Source of the DNA: a virus
Reading direction: 5' to 3' (one strand)
IMG/VR virus record: IMGVR_UViG_3300021405_000018
Location: 1 to 52,064 of that record
Length of the DNA stretch: 52,064 nucleotides
In this document: in pieces, positions 1-52,064 of the stretch
Layout: every line of letters starts with the position of its first letter
How positions within the stretch are numbered: the stretch's first letter is position 1
Program-made: the position numbers and the translations under genes
The notes under the pieces: model-generated
Told to the model about the DNA's origin: nothing
The model's input: the letters and a program-made list of their open reading frames with translations, nothing else
Database searches by the model: none

Positions 1-455
1 TCTGGCCGGGAATCAAGGCGTGGTGGGGTCGTACGTACGCGGAGCACCAGGAAGAATGGCCGCACCTCTTCATGCAGGATTCGTCCCACATGAACTACGA
101 GGAAGACGTCCAGGTCATCGGGTTCGGTCTCGCGTCGGTCAAGCCGGAAGGCGCTGGTACGATCTACCAGTCCGAAGTACAAGGCTTCATCACGCGGTAC
201 GTCCACCTCGCGTATAGCCTCGGCTATATCGTGACGCAGGAAGAGCTGGAGGACAACCTCTACGAGAAGGTGAGCAAGCGTCGGGCCGCAAGCCTTGCGT
301 TTAGCTTCCGCCAGACCAAGGAGAACGTTGCAGCGAACATCTACAACAACGCCTTCACCTCGGGTGTGCAGTTCCAGGGTGGTGACGGTGTTAGCCTGCT
401 GAACACGGCGCACCCGAATACCTCGGGCGGCACCTTTAGCAACATGCTCGCAGTT
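1..455. repeat. Left copy of the terminal overlap
   Basis: Bases 1-455 match 51610-52064 with 23 mismatches by hand count and no gaps. The mismatches cluster at 281-299 (8) and 383-410 (12) with long identical blocks between. The overlap shows the contig is circular or circularly permuted. The divergence means the two ends carry different alleles of the capsid gene. Confidence 0.9.
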
Positions 456-12145: not shown

Positions 12146-14724
12146 TGGCACAACCCTATATGGGGGACGTTGTCCCCGGCGCAGCACCACCGTCCAACGA
12201 TGGGCCTAAGCCCTACGAGGGGACGGTCGTGCCTATGCAGAGTGCATTGGCGAAGGCTCCTCCGCAGGCACCACAGGCGCAGCCTCAAGCACCGCAGGGG
12301 CCGCAGCCCTATAGTGGGCCAGTGCAGCAGGCCCCGACGACGACTACCCAGGCGGTAGAGCAGCGTTCGCAGAAGTCGTCTCAGGAGTTGACGAAGGAGT
12401 TCTACTCCATGCAGAACGGTAGTGCCCACCAAAGGGCGCAGCAGGCCATTGCCCGGTTCAACTTCGATGACATGATGAAGAACGACCAGGGCTTCAAGGC
12501 ATTCGTGGCAGGGGCATTCCCTGAGGTACCGCTCGAAGCAACGAAGGCTCTGTTCGCCAAGGTAGGGGCCGCTGCATTCAACAAGATTGGGCAGACCAAT
12601 ATCGGCAAGTCCCTCATCGCCTACTATCAGGCAGGCAAGGATGCGTCCGCACTGGCCGACGACCTGATCAAGCACGACCGCCAGTCCACTGCGCGGGAGC
12701 TACAACTTAAGAAGGACAACGACGAGTTCTTCAAGGCCAACCCGCACTACAAGGCCTTCGATGAGGAGGTCTATCACGCTGGCGAAGACCCTAGCTACAA
12801 GCTCTCCCCGGAGGCTGCCTACTACAAGAAGACCTACCTCGACCCCCGCAAGCAGCGGTTCGACTTCAGTGTGCAGGAGGCCAAGCGCCTGGGCGTGCAG
12901 TTGCCTGACGACATGGTAGACCTCGACAAGTACATGCACCGGCAGTACATGGAGCCGAAGCAGGGGCAGACGTTCTTCAAGACCTTGCAGGATGTGGTTG
13001 ATCCGAATGAGATGTTGCTCAACCACCCATCGACGCGGGGCTTCAGCAGGGACCCGGAGATTTTCCAGGTGCCCAACGCAGGCGTGGTGCAGTCCGCCCA
13101 CACCGGTGAGCGGGGTGGCTACATGATCGACCCTGGCTCACGCATCGTTGACATCTATAAGGGTGGGAAGGTCATTGACCGAGGCAGTATCGTTACCGAT
13201 CCCATTACGGGCGACCGGTCCATTGCCACCAAGAACGGCGGCCTGTGGGACATGGAACGTGGCACGACGAAGGAGATTGAAGCCCATACACCTGCCCGGT
13301 ACTTCAAGAGTGCAGCGGCCTCGATGACGGAGGCGCAGACACAGATCGATGACACCATTGCGAACGCCAAGTTCCTGCAAGGCCTAAAGACGAGCCCGAG
13401 CCTGCTGAAGCATGCCGTGCCCGAAGGTGTGAGGCCGCCTGACAAGTCCTGGGAGAAGGTTGACATCCCCGGCTACAAGGGCTTCGACGGTTGGCACTTC
13501 AATCCGAAAATGGCGAACGTCCTCAACGACTACACCGGCACGAAGATGGACACCAACACCATGATGCAGGGGGTGAATCGCATCATGCAAGGGTCGATCT
13601 TCCTTGACCCGCTGAAGCACTTGTTCAATGTGGAGTTCCATGCGGCGATGCAAGCGGGCCTGTTTGGTGGATTGACGCGGACACTCCAGGGTGGAGTGCG
13701 CCTGCTGACTCCGGGGGAGCAGACCCTCACCCGGCAGGCCATCGAAGGGGTGATCAACAAGGACCCGAAGTACTTGCAGTATGTGAAGGAGAGCCCCGGC
13801 TTGCGGGGGGCGAACAACGCTGTGCGGGACTACGGCAACCAGCTCCTGAAGCAGATGGGTAAGGACCCCAATCAACTAAATACGATGGCGAAGGCGCTCG
13901 GCTACGGCACGGGCGTCAACTTCATCCGTGCGGCCTATCGTGGGTCCAATGCCACCCTATGGGGCGTAGGCGACATGATCCTCTACAAGAGCTTTCTGGC
14001 CTCGGAGATTGAACACCCAGGGGCGACCAAGGCGCAGATCAGCAGCCTTGTGGGTGAGCACGTCCCAACGTATGTTGTGCCCTCAACCATCCTCGGGTCG
14101 AGGTCGTTCTCGAAGCTGGTGCAGAACCCCTGGTTCCTGGGCTTCTCCCGCTACGAGTACAACCGGGCGGCCAGCTACGGCAACCTCCTGAAGGGCCTTG
14201 TCAAGCCGAACGAACTGGAGGACACGGGCCAGTCGATGGACCAGATTGCCTCCCTCATCTTCCATACCGCAGTGACCTACCCGATGGTCAACCACGCCAT
14301 CCAGAAGATGACGAACAATCCCAACGCCTCGCTCGGGTGGTATGGGCCGTACTCCTACATCGGCGCAGGGGAGGACTACGCCGCAGGCAAGAAGACCTTT
14401 GCGCAGGCCGCAGTGCAGACGGCAGTACGCCCAAGTGCAGCGGTCGAGACTGCCGCCGAACTATACTATGGCAAGGAGCTATGGAAGGATGGCGGCAAGG
14501 ACCTCTACCATAGCGCCGGGGAGTTCGGCAAGTACCTGATGGGTAAGACCTACCCCACGCAGGCTATCATGCGGGTGGCAAGCCCACCGAAGGGTGTGAC
14601 GCCGAAGCAGGCCGTCCGGCAGTTCGCCCTTGACTTCATCGGCATCAAGGACCCCACACCGCAGCAGGAAGCGGCCATCACCAAGTACGCTGCCCTTGAA
14701 CTTAAGCGGAGGGCCAAGAAATGA
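12142..14724 (+). CDS. Large internal virion (ejection) protein (860 aa)
   Basis: ATGATG start in overlap with the previous gene. It is by far the largest of the three ejection candidates, as expected for the gp16-like or T7 gp16-like partner. The first 80 residues are Pro/Gln/Ala rich; the rest is helical with amphipathic segments. I see no lytic transglycosylase motif. The end (ALELKRRAKK) overlaps the ATP-grasp gene by 4 nt. Confidence 0.6.
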   Translation: MMAQPYMGDVVPGAAPPSNDGPKPYEGTVVPMQSALAKAPPQAPQAQPQAPQGPQPYSGPVQQAPTTTTQAVEQRSQKSSQELTKEFYSMQNGSAHQRAQQAIARFNFDDMMKNDQGFKAFVAGAFPEVPLEATKALFAKVGAAAFNKIGQTNIGKSLIAYYQAGKDASALADDLIKHDRQSTARELQLKKDNDEFFKANPHYKAFDEEVYHAGEDPSYKLSPEAAYYKKTYLDPRKQRFDFSVQEAKRLGVQLPDDMVDLDKYMHRQYMEPKQGQTFFKTLQDVVDPNEMLLNHPSTRGFSRDPEIFQVPNAGVVQSAHTGERGGYMIDPGSRIVDIYKGGKVIDRGSIVTDPITGDRSIATKNGGLWDMERGTTKEIEAHTPARYFKSAAASMTEAQTQIDDTIANAKFLQGLKTSPSLLKHAVPEGVRPPDKSWEKVDIPGYKGFDGWHFNPKMANVLNDYTGTKMDTNTMMQGVNRIMQGSIFLDPLKHLFNVEFHAAMQAGLFGGLTRTLQGGVRLLTPGEQTLTRQAIEGVINKDPKYLQYVKESPGLRGANNAVRDYGNQLLKQMGKDPNQLNTMAKALGYGTGVNFIRAAYRGSNATLWGVGDMILYKSFLASEIEHPGATKAQISSLVGEHVPTYVVPSTILGSRSFSKLVQNPWFLGFSRYEYNRAASYGNLLKGLVKPNELEDTGQSMDQIASLIFHTAVTYPMVNHAIQKMTNNPNASLGWYGPYSYIGAGEDYAAGKKTFAQAAVQTAVRPSAAVETAAELYYGKELWKDGGKDLYHSAGEFGKYLMGKTYPTQAIMRVASPPKGVTPKQAVRQFALDFIGIKDPTPQQEAAITKYAALELKRRAKK

Positions 14725-16037
14725 AAGTCCTCGTCATCGATACCTATGGCGTAGCTGTGGACTTCTGCCTGCGTTGCCAGTGGGCAGGCCACGATGTGAA
14801 GCACTACCTGTCACCGGGCAAGTATGACTGCGTCGGCAAGGGCCTCACCCACCGCGTATCAAACTGGCGTGACCACATGAAGTGGGCCGACATCATCGTA
14901 TGCACGGCCTCGGCCAAGTACGGCTGGGAAATGGAGAACTACTATGAAGCAGGCTATCCTATCTTTGGTGCTAATGAGGACTGCGCCAAGCTCGAACTGG
15001 ATCGTTGTGTCGGTATGGAAACTCTTACAAACCACGATATTGATGTCCTCCCTTATACTCGCTTCTCTCGCTACGATGATGCTCTTCGCCATGTTCGGGC
15101 TACTGGGGGAAGCTATGCTTGCAAACCTATAGGGGATGCGGACCGAGCACTCAGCTATGTGGCATCGGGGCCTGACGACATGATATCGATGATGCGTCGG
15201 GCCAAGCGCATGCACGGGGAGGCCAAGCAGGACTTCATCCTCCAGCAGAAGGCAGGCGGGATTGAGTTCGCTGTGGGCGGATGGTTCGGCCCACATGGAT
15301 TCAACAACGTATGGGAGGAGAACTTCGAACACAAGAAGTTCTTTGCTGGGGACACGGGCGTCAACACCGGCGAAATGGGCACGGCCATGAAGTACACGGA
15401 CGAGAGCAAGCTCGGCGAGATGCTGCTACGCCCACTGGAACGTGCCCTGAAAGCCCTGAAGTTCTGCGGCAACATCGACATCTCCGTCATGATCGATGAG
15501 AAGGGCAAGCCATGGCCTCTCGAATTCACCATGCGCATGGGCTGGCCCGCCTTCTACCTAAACCAGCACCTCCACAAGGGTGACCCTGTCCAGTGGATGT
15601 ACGACCTCGTCCACGGACGTGACAGCCTGAAGGTCAGCTACGACCACTGCATCGGCGTATGTGTGGTGGGGCCTAACTTCCCCCACAACTCGAAGGTCGC
15701 CGACGAGTGTGAAGGCATCCCTATCTATGGTATCAACCACGACAACATTGCCAACGTCCACTTCTGTGAAGTGATGGCATGTTCGGAGGAAGTATATGAA
15801 GAAGGTAAGTGGCGTTCTGTGGACCTGTTTGCCACTGCTGGCAGTTGGCCACTCGTTGTATGTGGTACTGGACCGTCTGTGGTACGGGCGAAGAAGCAGG
15901 CATACGATGTGATTGGGCAGATCAGGATTCCCAACTCGCATGGGCACCGCCCTGATATTGGGGACCGCTGCAAGGACCACATCAAGCAGCTCCAGTCGAT
16001 GGGCTATGCCAAGTCATGGGAGTACGGTGATGCCTAA
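14721..16037 (+). CDS. ATP-grasp ligase, PurD-like (438 aa)
   Basis: Begins MKVLVIDTYGVAVDFCLRC like the N-domain of phosphoribosylamine-glycine ligase. It continues with an ATP-grasp core: YACKPIGDADRALSYVASGP, FILQQKAGGIEFAVGGWF, TGVNTGEMGTAMKY (matching NTGGMG of PurD) and GKPWPLEFTMRMGWPAF (matching the Mg/ATP-binding EFNARFGDPE). The Asn and Asp of that last motif are changed to Thr and Trp, so catalysis or substrate may differ from PurD. Embedded among virion genes with 4- and 8-nt overlaps. Role could be nucleotide supply or peptide/nucleobase modification; not resolvable by eye. Confidence 0.75.
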   Translation: MKVLVIDTYGVAVDFCLRCQWAGHDVKHYLSPGKYDCVGKGLTHRVSNWRDHMKWADIIVCTASAKYGWEMENYYEAGYPIFGANEDCAKLELDRCVGMETLTNHDIDVLPYTRFSRYDDALRHVRATGGSYACKPIGDADRALSYVASGPDDMISMMRRAKRMHGEAKQDFILQQKAGGIEFAVGGWFGPHGFNNVWEENFEHKKFFAGDTGVNTGEMGTAMKYTDESKLGEMLLRPLERALKALKFCGNIDISVMIDEKGKPWPLEFTMRMGWPAFYLNQHLHKGDPVQWMYDLVHGRDSLKVSYDHCIGVCVVGPNFPHNSKVADECEGIPIYGINHDNIANVHFCEVMACSEEVYEEGKWRSVDLFATAGSWPLVVCGTGPSVVRAKKQAYDVIGQIRIPNSHGHRPDIGDRCKDHIKQLQSMGYAKSWEYGDA

Positions 16038-16771: not shown

Positions 16772-17272
16772 ATGTCCGTCGAACAAACCCATGAAGAGAA
16801 AGAGACCCTGTCAGTAGATGTTGACCTGCCAGGACACGACCCACGAGTAACTACGGCGATGTTCCGTAAGACCAAGCGCATGTTGATGAAGGTGGCGAAT
16901 GCGATGGGCTTCGACTTCAAGCGACCAGCAGGGCGGTGCTGGATATGCGACAAGACGGAGGCCGACCTCGGTCAGCCCCTCGAAGCACACCACTTCGGCA
17001 TCGAGCGGGCGTACATCGATGCGGCTATCCGCTGGAATGTGGTAGCCCAGGACTTCCCCATCTTCGACTGGAAGAACTTCAATCCGGCAAACCCTGCTGA
17101 TTTCATAGATAATATGGTGGCGCAAGGTGTGCTGCTATGCAAAGAGCACCATACTGGAAAGGATACTGGAGTGCATACGCTCCCCTTTAGCCTGTGGATC
17201 ATGCAGCGCTACCTTGCCGATGGAACCCGCTTTAACCCTACTGAGGTGATCGAACATGGCACTGATATCTGA
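16772..17272 (+). CDS. HNH-like zinc-binding protein (166 aa)
   Basis: Residues C56 and C59 (CWICD), the HH pair at 73-74 (LEAHHFGIERAY), and a late C...HH (LLCKEHHTGKDTGVH) give the Cys-His pattern of small phage HNH-fold proteins. The N-terminal 50 residues are charged. It overlaps the holin start by 17 nt. An endonuclease role linked to packaging is possible but the order of motifs is unusual. Confidence 0.6.
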   Translation: MSVEQTHEEKETLSVDVDLPGHDPRVTTAMFRKTKRMLMKVANAMGFDFKRPAGRCWICDKTEADLGQPLEAHHFGIERAYIDAAIRWNVVAQDFPIFDWKNFNPANPADFIDNMVAQGVLLCKEHHTGKDTGVHTLPFSLWIMQRYLADGTRFNPTEVIEHGTDI

Positions 17273-17714
17273 TCCCGTATCGGCGGTCGCTGGTGTCGTC
17301 CAGTCGATCATCAACGAGTTCCCCAACCCGGAGCAGAAGGCGGCGGCGCAGCAGTCGCTCGCCAACATGTACATGACTGGGCAGCTCCAGGCTATGACCA
17401 CCCAGGCGGGCGTCATTACAGCCGAGGAGAACAGCATGAACAAGCTGGAGTCCTCATGGCGGCCCGTACTGATGTACGTCTTCATGGTGATCCTGGTGTT
17501 TAACTATATCCTGGCCCCCATCATGCAGGCTATCCTCCACGTGACCCTCTCGCTACCGATCCCGCCCAACATGTGGACCCTGCTCGACATCGGTGTCGGC
17601 GGCTACATCTCAAGCCGTGGGCTGGAGAAGATGACCACACCACACCCAGTTACGGGCGTAAGCCCAATTGCCTCGACGGTACAGTCGGTGGCTAACGTCT
17701 TCAAGGGGCATTGA
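17256..17714 (+). CDS. Holin, three-TM (GTA-type) family (152 aa)
   Basis: Residues 65-95 carry SSWRPVLMYVFMVILVFNYILAPIMQAIL and 100-125 carry PIPPNMWTLLDIGVGGYISSRGLEK. This matches the family of 3-TM holins found with gene-transfer-agent and phage lysis genes (W-R-P ... P..LW.LL.IG.GGY..GR..EK). The first 60 residues (ISDPVSAVAGVVQSIINEF) form the helical N-terminus. It would depolarise or open the inner membrane to let the muramidase out. It leads the lysis cassette. Confidence 0.85.
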   Translation: MALISDPVSAVAGVVQSIINEFPNPEQKAAAQQSLANMYMTGQLQAMTTQAGVITAEENSMNKLESSWRPVLMYVFMVILVFNYILAPIMQAILHVTLSLPIPPNMWTLLDIGVGGYISSRGLEKMTTPHPVTGVSPIASTVQSVANVFKGH

Positions 17715-17715
17715 T

Positions 17716-18051
17716 ATGACCTTCTCAACTGTACAGTACCTCCGTCTAGTCCAGGTCGCCATTGCCACGGCCACGACGACCCAGTACACAACGCCTGCGG
17801 CCCGTCAGGACGTGATCAAGGACTATGAGATTTGCAACACTACGGCGGCGGCCATCACCGTCAGCCTCTACATTGTCCCCACGGGCAATAGTGCAGGCAC
17901 GGCCAACGCCATCCTGCTCTCGGCCTCGATCCCAGCCAACCAGACGTTCCACTGGACTGGGACTATCGTCATGAACGCGAGTGACTTCATTGCCACTGCT
18001 GCTTCTGCCACCGGTCTGACCTTGACGGTGAGTGGGCTGGAGTCGCAATAA
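17716..18051 (+). CDS. Small beta-rich virion protein (111 aa)
   Basis: An ATG at 17668 lies within the holin gene; I prefer 17716 with AAGGGG upstream. The product (STVQYLRLVQVAIATATTTQYTT ... KDYEICNTTAAAITVSLYIVPTG) is like a small decoration or tail-fibre domain and similar in style to the proteins at 2802-3602. No transmembrane segment despite its place in the lysis region. The stop overlaps the next ATG. Confidence 0.6.
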   Translation: MTFSTVQYLRLVQVAIATATTTQYTTPAARQDVIKDYEICNTTAAAITVSLYIVPTGNSAGTANAILLSASIPANQTFHWTGTIVMNASDFIATAASATGLTLTVSGLESQ

Positions 18052-18596
18052 TGACTACTGGAATGGTACCGGAGTTCGGGCTGGAGATTGTCAACCTGTA
18101 TGCACCAGCAGGGACGCGTATCCCTATGCAGCAAGCCGCCCCTCCGCTTGGGTGGACATCGGACACGAGCACACCTATGACCGACTGCTCCATGCGTATT
18201 AATAGTGGGACTGGTGGCGGGAATGGCGGTACGACCGGGTGGTCGAGCTGGAACTTCGGCGGCGTGTTCAACGTTAATGCCTTCTCACTGTCCATCGCGC
18301 AGCTTGCTGCACACGCGCACACTGACGTAGGCCACGGGCACGGTGTGAATGATGGAGGCCACGCTCACTTGCTCGGAGCGGCGTACTGCTACCTCGCGGG
18401 TGGTGGGGACCTCTCCGGTAACGGCGGCACTAATGTTCACTACCAGAACAACGGGACAACTGCCGCAACCACTGGCGTTAGCATCCAGGCAGGCTTCGCA
18501 GGCATCACAAACACAGGCTCCGGTGCAGCCATCCAGCCAAACTACACCACCCCCCAGGTCAAGTACGCTGACCACATCATGGCGGTCAAATCATGA
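18051..18596 (+). CDS. Tail-collar type fibre tip with HxH motifs (181 aa)
   Basis: The layout AGTRIPMQQAAPPLGWTSD...NAFSLSIAQLAAHAHTDVGHGHGVNDGGHAH...AIQPNYTTPQVKYADHIMAVKS is that of phage tail collar or short-fibre C-terminal domains (GW..D..., LSx.QLPxHxHxxxxxxHxH, NxPPYxxxxyIMk). The cluster of HxH repeats is known in T4-type fibre tips to bind iron along the trimer axis. A receptor-binding or baseplate tip protein is likely. Confidence 0.75.
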   Translation: MTTGMVPEFGLEIVNLYAPAGTRIPMQQAAPPLGWTSDTSTPMTDCSMRINSGTGGGNGGTTGWSSWNFGGVFNVNAFSLSIAQLAAHAHTDVGHGHGVNDGGHAHLLGAAYCYLAGGGDLSGNGGTNVHYQNNGTTAATTGVSIQAGFAGITNTGSGAAIQPNYTTPQVKYADHIMAVKS

Positions 18597-18916
18597 GCAA
18601 GAACCTATGCCCGTTCTGGAAGAAGGAATGCATCGAGCATGACTGTGTCATGTATATGCGCATCTCCTGGGTACATCCGCAGACAGGCCTGGGTGAGGAT
18701 AAGTTCGCCTGCGCAATCCCTACCGGGGTGATGATGCAGGTTGAGAGCGCCCGGCAGACCAGGGGCGTACAAGCCTCCGTCGATAGCATGCGCAACGAGG
18801 TTGTGAAGCGTCAGGATGTCCTGAACGCTGCTATTGAGGAGCGCAAGCATGAAGTCCCTACTGTTACCTTTGACCATACTGGTAGCCCAAGCCTGCACGA
18901 CGGCACCTCCCGCTAA
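18593..18916 (+). CDS. Small Cys-rich protein overlapping the protease gene (107 aa)
   Basis: ATGA overlap with the fibre gene. The N-terminus CPFWKKECIEHDCVMYMR with a later C in FACAIP suggests a small metal or Fe-S site seen in other phage proteins of unknown function; the rest is a helix (VESARQTRGVQASVDSMRNEVV). Its last 68 bases overlap the start of the lipoprotein protease in another frame, an arrangement reminiscent of spanin pairs, though no TM segment is present here. Confidence 0.6.
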   Translation: MSKNLCPFWKKECIEHDCVMYMRISWVHPQTGLGEDKFACAIPTGVMMQVESARQTRGVQASVDSMRNEVVKRQDVLNAAIEERKHEVPTVTFDHTGSPSLHDGTSR

Positions 18917-19463
18917 CCCCTACATGCAGGCGAGGGCAACGACGGTCCTTGTCAACAACCTCAAGGGGTCTATTGGTACGGGTAATGTCGTCAACGACAA
19001 GTGCGTCCTCACTGCGGCCCACGTCGCAGACCAGGACATCGTTGACCTCGTAACGGCGTCCGACAAAGAGTTCATTGCAATGCGGGTGGCCCACGATGAA
19101 GCCGAAGACATTGCGGTCGTCTGCACTACAGTCGCACTTGACTCGCCGCCAGTTTCGATTGGCCCGGACCCGGCTACTTACGACCCTGTATTCACTATTG
19201 GCTATCCGAAGGGGCGACACCTCTTCCTCACGACCGGCCAGTGGGAAGACAACGACACGATAAGTGCGGACTGTGCCCCCGGCAACTCGGGCGGTGGCGT
19301 CTTCGACATGACTGACCACTACGTAGGGTTTGTTGATGCAGTCGCAATCACCCTGGTCAACAAGTCCCCCAACCTGATTTACCATATCTGCGACATCGTA
19401 GGGACGAAAGCCATTACGAAGTTCCTTGACACGAACCACATCCAATACCAGGGACACATATGA
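18849..19463 (+). CDS. Lipoprotein trypsin-like serine protease (204 aa)
   Basis: I choose ATG 18849, with GAGGAG 7 nt upstream. The first 15 residues are a signal peptide (MKSLLLPLTILVAQA) and C16 sits in a lipobox-like AQAC, so it should be an exported lipoprotein. The mature part is a chymotrypsin-fold serine protease with visible triad: H58 in VLTAAHVAD, D87 in EAEDIAVV, S147 in CAPGNSGGG. It lies between holin and endolysin, overlapping genes at both ends. A role in lysis (outer-membrane or envelope protein cleavage) or in blocking superinfection is inferred from position only. Confidence 0.8.
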   Translation: MKSLLLPLTILVAQACTTAPPANPYMQARATTVLVNNLKGSIGTGNVVNDKCVLTAAHVADQDIVDLVTASDKEFIAMRVAHDEAEDIAVVCTTVALDSPPVSIGPDPATYDPVFTIGYPKGRHLFLTTGQWEDNDTISADCAPGNSGGGVFDMTDHYVGFVDAVAITLVNKSPNLIYHICDIVGTKAITKFLDTNHIQYQGHI

Positions 19464-19642
19464 GCGAAGAACGATTTGACTGTCTGGAGCAGCGCCTGGA
19501 CAAGATGCAGGTGCAGATGGACCAGATACTTGAGATGGTAGCCGTAGGCAAGGGCGCTCTCGTGGCAGCCAAGCTACTCGGCTGGATCACTGCCACGGGC
19601 GTCGCTTGCGTCGAACTATGGCGTACCTTTAGGGGGCACTAG
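19460..19642 (+). CDS. Small membrane protein of the lysis cassette (60 aa)
   Basis: ATGA overlap with the protease gene. Residues 1-28 form a charged heptad helix (EERFDCLEQRLDKMQVQMDQIL), followed by one membrane helix (GALVAAKLLGWITATGVACVEL) and a short basic tail. Coiled coil plus one TM directly before the muramidase suggests a second holin, antiholin or inner-membrane spanin-like part; which is undecided. Confidence 0.6.
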   Translation: MSEERFDCLEQRLDKMQVQMDQILEMVAVGKGALVAAKLLGWITATGVACVELWRTFRGH

Positions 19643-19644
19643 AA

Positions 19645-20133
19645 ATGCAAACTGACTTTGAATACTGTGTAGCTATTGTCCTGCAAGATGAGGGCGGGCT
19701 CGTCAATAATCCGCACGACCCCGGTGGCACCACCAACTTCGGGATCAGCCAGCGGGCATACCCAAGCCTCAACATTGCTGCTCTCACCAAGGAGCAAGCC
19801 GCACAAATCTACTACGATGATTACTGGACGCCCAACAACTGTGGGGATGTACCACTGCAACTGGGCCTTTACTTCTTCACTGTCTGTGTCATGTCGGGTG
19901 GGATGACGGCGACAAAGCTGCTCCAGCAACTTGTGGGAGTAACGGTGGATGGTGCGTATGGGCCTCACACTTCGAATGCTGTCCATAGCTTCCCTGCTGA
20001 ACGTCACTACGAGTATCTTACGCTGTTCATTCAACATCTCATGACCCTCTCAGACTGGGGACCGTTCGCTAAAGGTTGGCTAAATCGGGTTTTACGGCTG
20101 GCTTCTTTAGCACCACCTTCGCAGCAACCGTAA
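19645..20133 (+). CDS. Endolysin, GH108-type muramidase (162 aa)
   Basis: The N-terminus has the family's E-G-G-x-V-N-x-P-x-D-P-G-G-x-T-N-F-G-I-S motif (E16 catalytic), followed by ISQRAYPSLNIAALTKEQAAQIYYDDYW. Residues 95-150 match the small peptidoglycan-binding half (VDGAYGPHTSNAV...WLNRV). It cleaves the glycan backbone after holin opening. There is no signal peptide. Its last 65 bases overlap the end of the oppositely oriented DUF3987 gene. Confidence 0.85.
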   Translation: MQTDFEYCVAIVLQDEGGLVNNPHDPGGTTNFGISQRAYPSLNIAALTKEQAAQIYYDDYWTPNNCGDVPLQLGLYFFTVCVMSGGMTATKLLQQLVGVTVDGAYGPHTSNAVHSFPAERHYEYLTLFIQHLMTLSDWGPFAKGWLNRVLRLASLAPPSQQP

Positions 20134-51560: not shown

Positions 51561-52064
51561 ATGCCAGGAATTGGCGGTATCATCACCACAGGCGCACACC
51601 CCAAGGCGCTCTGGCCGGGAATCAAGGCGTGGTGGGGTCGTACGTACGCGGAACACCAGGAAGAATGGCCGCACCTCTTCATGCAGGATTCGTCCCACAT
51701 GAACTACGAGGAAGACGTCCAGGTCATCGGGTTCGGTCTCGCGTCGGTCAAGCCGGAAGGCGCTGGTACGATCTACCAGTCCGAAGTACAGGGCTTCATC
51801 ACGCGGTACGTCCACCTCGCGTATAGCCTCGGCTATATCGTGACGCAGGAAGAGCTGGAGGACAACCTCTACGAGAAGGTGAGCAAGCGGAGGGCAGCAT
51901 CGCTGGCCTTTAGCTTCCGCCAGACCAAGGAGAACGTTGCAGCGAACATCTACAACAACGCCTTCACCTCGGGTGTGCAGTTCCAGGGTGGGGATGGAGT
52001 GTCGCTCCTGAATGTGGCTCACCCGAATACCTCGGGCGGCACCTTCAGCAACATGCTCGCAGTT
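51561..52064 (+). CDS. Major capsid protein, 5' part (cut by the window edge)
   Basis: AGGAG lies 6 nt before the ATG; the frame runs to the window end (168 codons). It starts MPGIGGIITTGAHPKALWPG and continues as in 3-455. The N-terminal start and ribosome site define the beginning of the gene completed at 1-881. Confidence 0.85.
   Translation, partial: MPGIGGIITTGAHPKALWPGIKAWWGRTYAEHQEEWPHLFMQDSSHMNYEEDVQVIGFGLASVKPEGAGTIYQSEVQGFITRYVHLAYSLGYIVTQEELEDNLYEKVSKRRAASLAFSFRQTKENVAANIYNNAFTSGVQFQGGDGVSLLNVAHPNTSGGTFSNMLAV
51610..52064. repeat. Right copy of the terminal overlap
   Basis: Same 455 nt as 1-455, with 23 mismatches by hand count, almost all silent. Confirms circularity; the alleles differ. 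Confidence 0.9.

What the first reader, a model, noticed from the sequence alone, without database searches (positions are those of the whole stretch)
18849..19463. Lipoprotein serine protease in the lysis cassette
Signal peptide with lipobox-like AQAC (C16) and a complete H58/D87/S147 triad, placed between holin and muramidase genes with overlaps. Spanins normally deal with the outer membrane here; none is recognised. A secreted protease could take that role, or cleave receptors to stop superinfection.
Basis: partly seen in the sequence, partly recalled or inferred. Interest (0 to 1): 0.7.

Follow-up and report, generated by a model that had tools for sequence, protein, structure and literature searches.

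The report
Lipid-anchored protease among phage lysis genes
A bacterial virus carries, next to the genes that burst its host, a protein-cutting enzyme that appears to be exported and fastened to the cell envelope by a lipid, and it may do the job of the outer-membrane breaker that this virus seems to lack.

Summary
Window 18849-19463 encodes a 204-aa exported Trypsin_2 serine protease: Pfam 4e-15; an AlphaFold model (pLDDT 86) matches the DegS and MarP protease domains at Z about 25; the H58/D87/S147 triad is conserved. Four homologues at 33-50% identity were found in viral contigs. All five proteins keep a signal peptide with a lipobox-type cysteine, and none has Asp after it. In four of four phages whose surroundings are visible, the gene overlaps a 60-aa coiled-coil/TM (XhlA-like) gene that is followed by a GH108 endolysin. 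The near-complete circular genome (455-bp end overlap) has no spanin I could recognise, nor have the other three protease phages. Two relatives without the protease (MW202796, MW202785) carry Rz1-like lipoproteins, but a third (G008) has neither. Independently, Sulfitobacter phage pCB2047-C has GH108, holin, XhlA and a Sec-exported Trypsin_2 protease in one cluster. Against simple replacement: Rhizobium phage RHph_TM3_3_14B has both spanin and protease, and other phages carry such proteases far from lysis genes. Best reading: an envelope-anchored protease made with the lysis proteins that helps breach the outer membrane (confidence 0.45). Receptor removal is the main rival. New variant of a known kind; function untested.

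The parts
18849..19463 (+). Exported, putative lipoprotein Trypsin_2 serine protease, 204 aa; H58/D87/S147
   Evidence: Pfam PF13365 57.1 bits against cut-off 27.6; conserved triad; AF2 model pLDDT 86, DegS/MarP fold
18849..18896 (+). Signal peptide and lipobox-type site ending at C16; +2 residue Thr (no Asp)
   Evidence: five of five close members have the Cys at position 14-16
18837..18842 (+). Shine-Dalgarno-like GAGGAG before ATG 18849; the same GAGGAG-spacer-ATG layout is seen in G010
   Evidence: read from sequence
19460..19642 (+). 60-aa protein: acidic N-terminal coiled-coil-like part, TM 33-51; XhlA-like by layout only
   Evidence: no PF10779 hit
19645..20133 (+). GH108 endolysin (N-acetylmuramidase type), no signal peptide
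   Evidence: Pfam PF05838 7.8e-21, phrog_315 8.8e-41
17256..17714 (+). GTA_holin_3TM holin
   Evidence: Pfam PF11351 3.2e-18, phrog_3427 1.3e-26
18593..18916 (+). 107-aa Cys-rich protein without TM, overlapping the protease start by 68 nt; kept in G010 and G015, not found in G003
18051..18596 (+). Tail collar/fibre-like protein just upstream
   Evidence: phrog_31611 1.1e-3

Best explanation
A late phage gene makes a Sec-exported protease that is lipid-modified and, having no Asp after the cysteine, is probably sorted to the outer membrane. A short tether (structured from about residue 21) holds an HtrA-type catalytic domain, without PDZ, at the periplasmic face of that membrane. It is made together with the holin, the coiled-coil/TM protein and the GH108 endolysin. 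When the wall is cut, its cleavage of envelope proteins (for instance outer-membrane proteins or wall-membrane tethers) helps the outer membrane give way, the step that spanins perform in other phages. Shown by sequence and model: fold, triad, signal, conserved Cys, cassette, absence of recognisable spanins. Inferred: lipid modification, membrane sorting, substrate and role in lysis.
For: Trypsin_2 match and fold. Lipobox-type Cys in 5 of 5 close members at 33-50% identity. Gene overlaps the 60-aa gene, which is followed by the GH108 endolysin, in 4 of 4 visible cassettes. dN well below dS (dN 0.44-0.61 against dS 1.3-2.7; dS near saturation). Four Cys are invariant in the first three members; the pair C142/C181 is lost together in L045 while C52/C92 stay, as expected of two disulfides in an exported protein. 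The protease is the only homologue-supported lipoprotein candidate in the window, G003, G010 and G015. Relatives MW202796 and MW202785 have Rz1-like lipoproteins and no protease. Sulfitobacter phage pCB2047-C clusters GH108, holin, PF10779 XhlA and a Sec-exported Trypsin_2 protease, with no gene-like lipoprotein found. Rhizobium phage 16-3, listed as spanin-less in PMC6139136, has such a protease about 1.7 kb after its endolysin-like gene.
Against: G008, same phage group, has the XhlA-like and endolysin genes but neither protease nor a gene-like lipoprotein candidate, so the step can apparently be done otherwise (or the record is incomplete). RHph_TM3_3_14B has a spanin pair and the protease. 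Pootjesviridae (phiM9, AF3, N34) and KZY1 carry related proteases away from lysis genes. L045 lies beside a glycosyltransferase-like and structural genes. A protease exported before lysis would need some restraint, and none was found. Host and envelope type are unknown.
Confidence: 0.45

Rival explanations
1. Receptor shaving: the envelope-anchored protease cuts the phage's own outer-membrane receptor late in infection, so that released progeny are not trapped on debris and the cell is not superinfected.
For: Gene follows tail fibre/collar genes in window and G010 and a C1q-like tail gene in G003; protease diverges more (44-50% identity) than holin (60-70%), XhlA-like (59-78%) and endolysin (58-72%) in the same phages, as for a host-specific factor. 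Lipoproteins that block phage receptors (T5 Llp, Cor) are known (recalled).
Against: Operon overlap is with the lysis genes; in Sulfitobacter phage the protease sits after XhlA, not beside tail genes. An outer-membrane lipoprotein facing the periplasm would not easily reach surface loops.
Confidence: 0.22
2. It processes another envelope enzyme or inhibitor, as MarP activates the wall hydrolase RipA (recalled): it turns on host wall hydrolases or destroys host lysozyme inhibitors so the GH108 endolysin works.
For: MarP (Rv3671c) is the best PDB sequence match (7e-8) and a close fold match (Z 24.5, 2.1 A); the gene shares a cluster with GH108 in two unrelated cassettes.
Against: MarP family cut-off not reached (39.9 of 250 bits); a shared fold shows no function.
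Confidence: 0.12
3. General accessory gene (moron): an exported quality-control-type protease that helps the infected or lysogenic cell, its place beside lysis genes being incidental.
For: Related exported proteases lie at other places in Pootjesviridae and KZY1; TM3_3_14B has it beyond an annotated attL site, with a spanin pair too.
Against: Tight overlap and order kept in 4 of 4 divergent phages here. Lysogeny genes were not searched for in the window.
Confidence: 0.16
4. Virion maturation or virion-borne protease.
For: Some phages encode proteases for head maturation (recalled); the gene is in the late region.
Against: Signal peptide and lipobox-type Cys in 5 of 5; trypsin fold, not a prohead protease family.
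Confidence: 0.03

Closest known systems
PHROG 9683 'protease' (Sulfitobacter phage pCB2047-A/-C/NYA-2014a, Rhizobium phage 16-3, Sinorhizobium phage phiM9)
   Same: Exported or membrane-anchored phage Trypsin_2 protease; in pCB2047-C in a lysis cluster with GH108 and XhlA
   Different: Window protein is distant (47 bits, against 182-261 for the four annotated-phage proteins tested); the members read here have Sec signals or N-terminal anchors without a lipobox
DegS / HtrA protease domains
   Same: Fold, Z 25.5; same order of catalytic residues; envelope location
   Different: No PDZ domain; NCBIfam DegP/HtrA cut-offs not reached; lipid instead of TM anchor (inferred)
MarP (Rv3671c), M. tuberculosis
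   Same: Best PDB sequence match, fold Z 24.5
   Different: MarP has a multi-TM domain (recalled); family cut-off not reached
Spanins (Rz/Rz1, u-spanin T1 gp11)
   Same: Late lysis-linked lipoprotein; proposed to serve the same step
   Different: Globular enzyme of 189 mature residues, no C-terminal TMD, no i-spanin partner recognised
Disruptin (phiKT)
   Same: An alternative to spanins for outer-membrane breach (PMC12819732, passages read)
   Different: Disruptin is a short amphipathic peptide, not an enzyme

Membership tests
Trypsin_2 / clan PA serine protease | Pfam PF13365 above gathering score | tested here: met
   57.1 bits against 27.6
Trypsin_2 / clan PA serine protease | His-Asp-Ser triad in order | tested here: met
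   H58, D87, S147 invariant in alignment of 12
Trypsin_2 / clan PA serine protease | Chymotrypsin-like double-barrel fold | tested here: met
   pLDDT 86; DegS Z 25.5, MarP Z 24.5
HtrA/Deg family | C-terminal PDZ domain and family score | tested here: not met
   No PDZ hit at E 1; 28.9 of 416 bits for degP_htrA_DO
MarP family | NCBIfam NF033740 cut-off | tested here: not met
   39.9 of 250 bits
PHROG 9683 | Match to the family profile over its length | tested here: inconclusive
   4.4e-12 over 3-196 to 17-224/233, far below the four annotated-phage proteins tested
Bacterial lipoprotein (signal peptidase II substrate) | n-region charge, short h-region, lipobox Cys | tested here: met
   Relaxed pattern 5 of 5 members; strict consensus 2 of 5
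Bacterial lipoprotein (signal peptidase II substrate) | Lipid modification and globomycin-sensitive cleavage | not testable with these tools
   Needs wet work
Spanin (o-, u-) | u-spanin: C-terminal TMD; o-spanin: small lipoprotein with an overlapping i-spanin | tested here: not met
   No TM in the protease; neighbours tested lack an N-terminal TM i-spanin layout
XhlA (for the 60-aa neighbour) | Pfam PF10779 match | tested here: inconclusive
   No hit for the window protein; same layout; the Sulfitobacter neighbour hits at 9.5e-12

The most novel reading that the evidence does not exclude
A third class of outer-membrane breaker besides spanins and disruptins: a lipid-anchored trypsin-like protease that replaces the spanin in a clade of phages, with an analogous Sec-exported version arrived at independently in Sulfitobacter phages.
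Probability: 0.33. Interest if true: 0.85.

Novelty: new variant of a known kind. Interest (0 to 1): 0.6.

Why it matters
About 13% of the phages surveyed have no recognisable spanin (91 of 677; PMC6139136, section read and table passage), and how such phages breach the outer membrane is called an open question (PMC12819732, passage read). A conserved, envelope-anchored protease in the lysis cassette of spanin-less phages is a concrete, testable candidate. 'Protease' does not occur in the main text of that spanin survey.

Tried and rejected
Rejected: bacterial contamination of the window (it is a closed phage genome). Rejected as phage relatives: H1 and H2, whose neighbours look like bacterial genes, and MW462191, whose neighbours are cytochrome-biogenesis genes. 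Rejected: cytoplasmic or virion protease, because of the signal and Cys in 5 of 5.

Led nowhere: P0001 alone in viral contigs (no relative); L028 protein in phages (no match); first structure job with 3 sequences (pLDDT 35); promoter/terminator scan (none found). The 23 endolysin loci beyond the close relatives show no protease by profile search. The genome-contig scan gave 4 distant bacterial proteases only.

Limits: my lipobox scans are home-made patterns, not SignalP. Each version missed something: one search missed the G003 protease; the K/R rule missed the TM3_3_14B o-spanin, which required an SD, missed the G003 protease and the TM3 o-spanin. So 'no spanin' means none recognised. The dS values are near saturation and several could not be computed. 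Relatives examined for protease and spanin: 9 genomes, of which protease only 4 (window, G003, G010, G015), Rz1-like lipoprotein only 2 (MW202796, with an embedded pair; MW202785, for which no i-spanin partner was worked out), and neither established 3 (G008; Alcaligenes phage QDWS535, with two unclassified lipoprotein candidates; EBPR podovirus 1, a partial sequence). The many PDB rows say only that the fold is common.

None listed a phage lysis-cassette lipoprotein protease by title or abstract start; the library holds only open-licence PMC papers. Read: PMC6139136 section 15 whole and passages; passages of PMC9239132, PMC9636201, PMC10783043, PMC9671378 and PMC12819732.

Full report
What was checked. 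The ORF 18849-19463 exists, starts at ATG 18849 behind GAGGAG, and codes for 204 aa. It overlaps the 107-aa gene 18593-18916 by 68 nt and the 60-aa gene 19460-19642 by 4 nt. The GTA_holin_3TM holin is at 17256-17714 and the GH108 endolysin at 19645-20133. The window is an IMG/VR virus record. Its two ends overlap by 455 bp at 432 of 455 identical bases within the major head gene, so the map is close to complete and an absence in it means something.

What the protein is. Pfam PF13365 Trypsin_2 scores 57.1 bits (cut-off 27.6) and PF00089 just passes. The nearest PDB sequences are MarP Rv3671c (7e-8) and then HtrA types. With 12 aligned relatives AlphaFold2 gave pLDDT 86 and pTM 0.81; an earlier job with 3 sequences failed (pLDDT 35). 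The model aligns with DegS at Z 25.5 (181 residues, 4.3 A) and MarP at Z 24.5 (166 residues, 2.1 A). H58, D87 and S147 are invariant in all 12. There is no PDZ domain hit, and the curated HtrA and MarP cut-offs are not reached. It is thus a stand-alone HtrA-type protease domain, not an HtrA.

Export and anchor. Four closer homologues were found: G003 (50%), G010 (46%), L044 in G015 (46%) and L045 (33% over the alignment, 39% in its best segment). All five start with a charged residue, a short hydrophobic stretch and a Cys at position 14-16: AQAC, LVGC, TLGC, FLGC, LVGC. By the strict consensus [LVI][ASTVI][GAS]C only two pass; the relaxed pattern passes all. AWAC has been shown to work as a lipobox (PMC6139136, passage). 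For the window protein alone AQA|C could also be a signal peptidase I site. The residue after Cys is T, A, S, V, V: never Asp, the E. coli inner-membrane retention signal (established knowledge). The model is well ordered from about residue 21, so the catalytic domain would sit close to the membrane. C52, C92, C142 and C181 are invariant in the first three; L045 lacks both C142 and C181 but keeps the other two, which suggests disulfides C142-C181 and C52-C92 (inference) and fits an oxidising periplasm.

Genomic setting. In window, G003, G010 and G015 the order protease, 60-aa coiled-coil/TM gene, GH108 endolysin is kept, with touching or overlapping ends of protease and 60-aa gene. The protease diverges more (44-50% identity) than holin (60-70%), 60-aa protein (59-78%) and endolysin (58-72%). 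In G006/G008 and the near-identical contigs L055-L058 (one lineage), the 60-aa and endolysin genes are present without the protease. Cys8 of the 60-aa protein is present in the four protease phages and absent in that lineage; with so few cases this may be chance. L045 has other neighbours.

Spanins. Pattern scans of all six frames found no homologue-supported lipoprotein other than the protease in window, G003, G010 and G015, and no gene-like one in G008. Simulated sequences gave 1.6 such ORFs per genome by chance. MW202796, whose portal is 47% identical, has an embedded Rz/Rz1-type pair, the o-spanin matching a PHROG Rz-like family at 4.9e-5. MW202785 has an Rz1-like lipoprotein at 6.1e-5. 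The protease profile finds nothing in either. QDWS535 and EBPR podovirus 1 have no protease and no spanin that I could establish.

Wider family. Annotated phages carry exported Trypsin_2 proteases of PHROG 9683. In Sulfitobacter phage pCB2047-C the cluster reads GH108 endolysin, holin, 118-aa protein, XhlA (PF10779 9.5e-12), protease with a Sec signal, and my scan found no gene-like lipoprotein there. Rhizobium phage 16-3, in the published list of spanin-less phages, has its protease 1.7 kb after an endolysin-like gene. RHph_X2_25 has it about 2.9 kb after its lysozyme. Against this, RHph_TM3_3_14B has a spanin pair and a protease, and in Pootjesviridae and KZY1 the gene lies elsewhere. The exported phage protease is therefore a known, mostly unstudied kind; the lipid-anchored form in a lysis cassette is what I did not find described in the searches made (open-licence papers only).

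Judgement. That this is an exported protease of the lysis cassette is firm; that it is a lipoprotein is likely; that it takes the outer-membrane step is the best single guess but open. The strongest points against are G008 (neither gene) and TM3_3_14B (both). Receptor removal remains a fair rival given the nearby tail genes and the faster divergence.

Noticed in passing
window 1-455 and 51610-52064: The ends overlap by 455 bp at 432 of 455 identical bases inside the major head gene: the genome closes to about 51.6 kb with two slightly different versions of the stretch.
   Followed up: yes
window 19460-19642: 60-aa coiled-coil/TM protein next to the endolysin; Cys8 is kept in the four protease phages and absent in the protease-less lineage.
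   Followed up: partly
window 18593-18916: 107-aa protein with a CPFWKKECIEHDC motif, no Pfam or PHROG match, kept in G010 and G015.
   Followed up: partly
window 14721-16037: 438-aa protein without PHROG match, strongly conserved in G003, G008 and G010; ATP-grasp-like by eye (recalled, untested).
   Followed up: no
L030 4125-4592 (G008): 155-aa protein near the lysis genes of the protease-less relative, phrog_1128 at 1.8e-15; permuted NlpC/P60-like by eye (recalled, untested).
   Followed up: no
L045 and L046: In both, the trypsin-like gene is followed by a similar glycosyltransferase-like gene (by eye).
   Followed up: no
L035, L036, L048: Trypsin_2-like proteins of large viral contigs whose signal also ends in a lipobox-like Cys (AQSC, LFAC).
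   Followed up: no
MT835589, MT835582, MW462191 in the phage collection: Records filed as phage whose genes around the protease look bacterial.
   Followed up: partly
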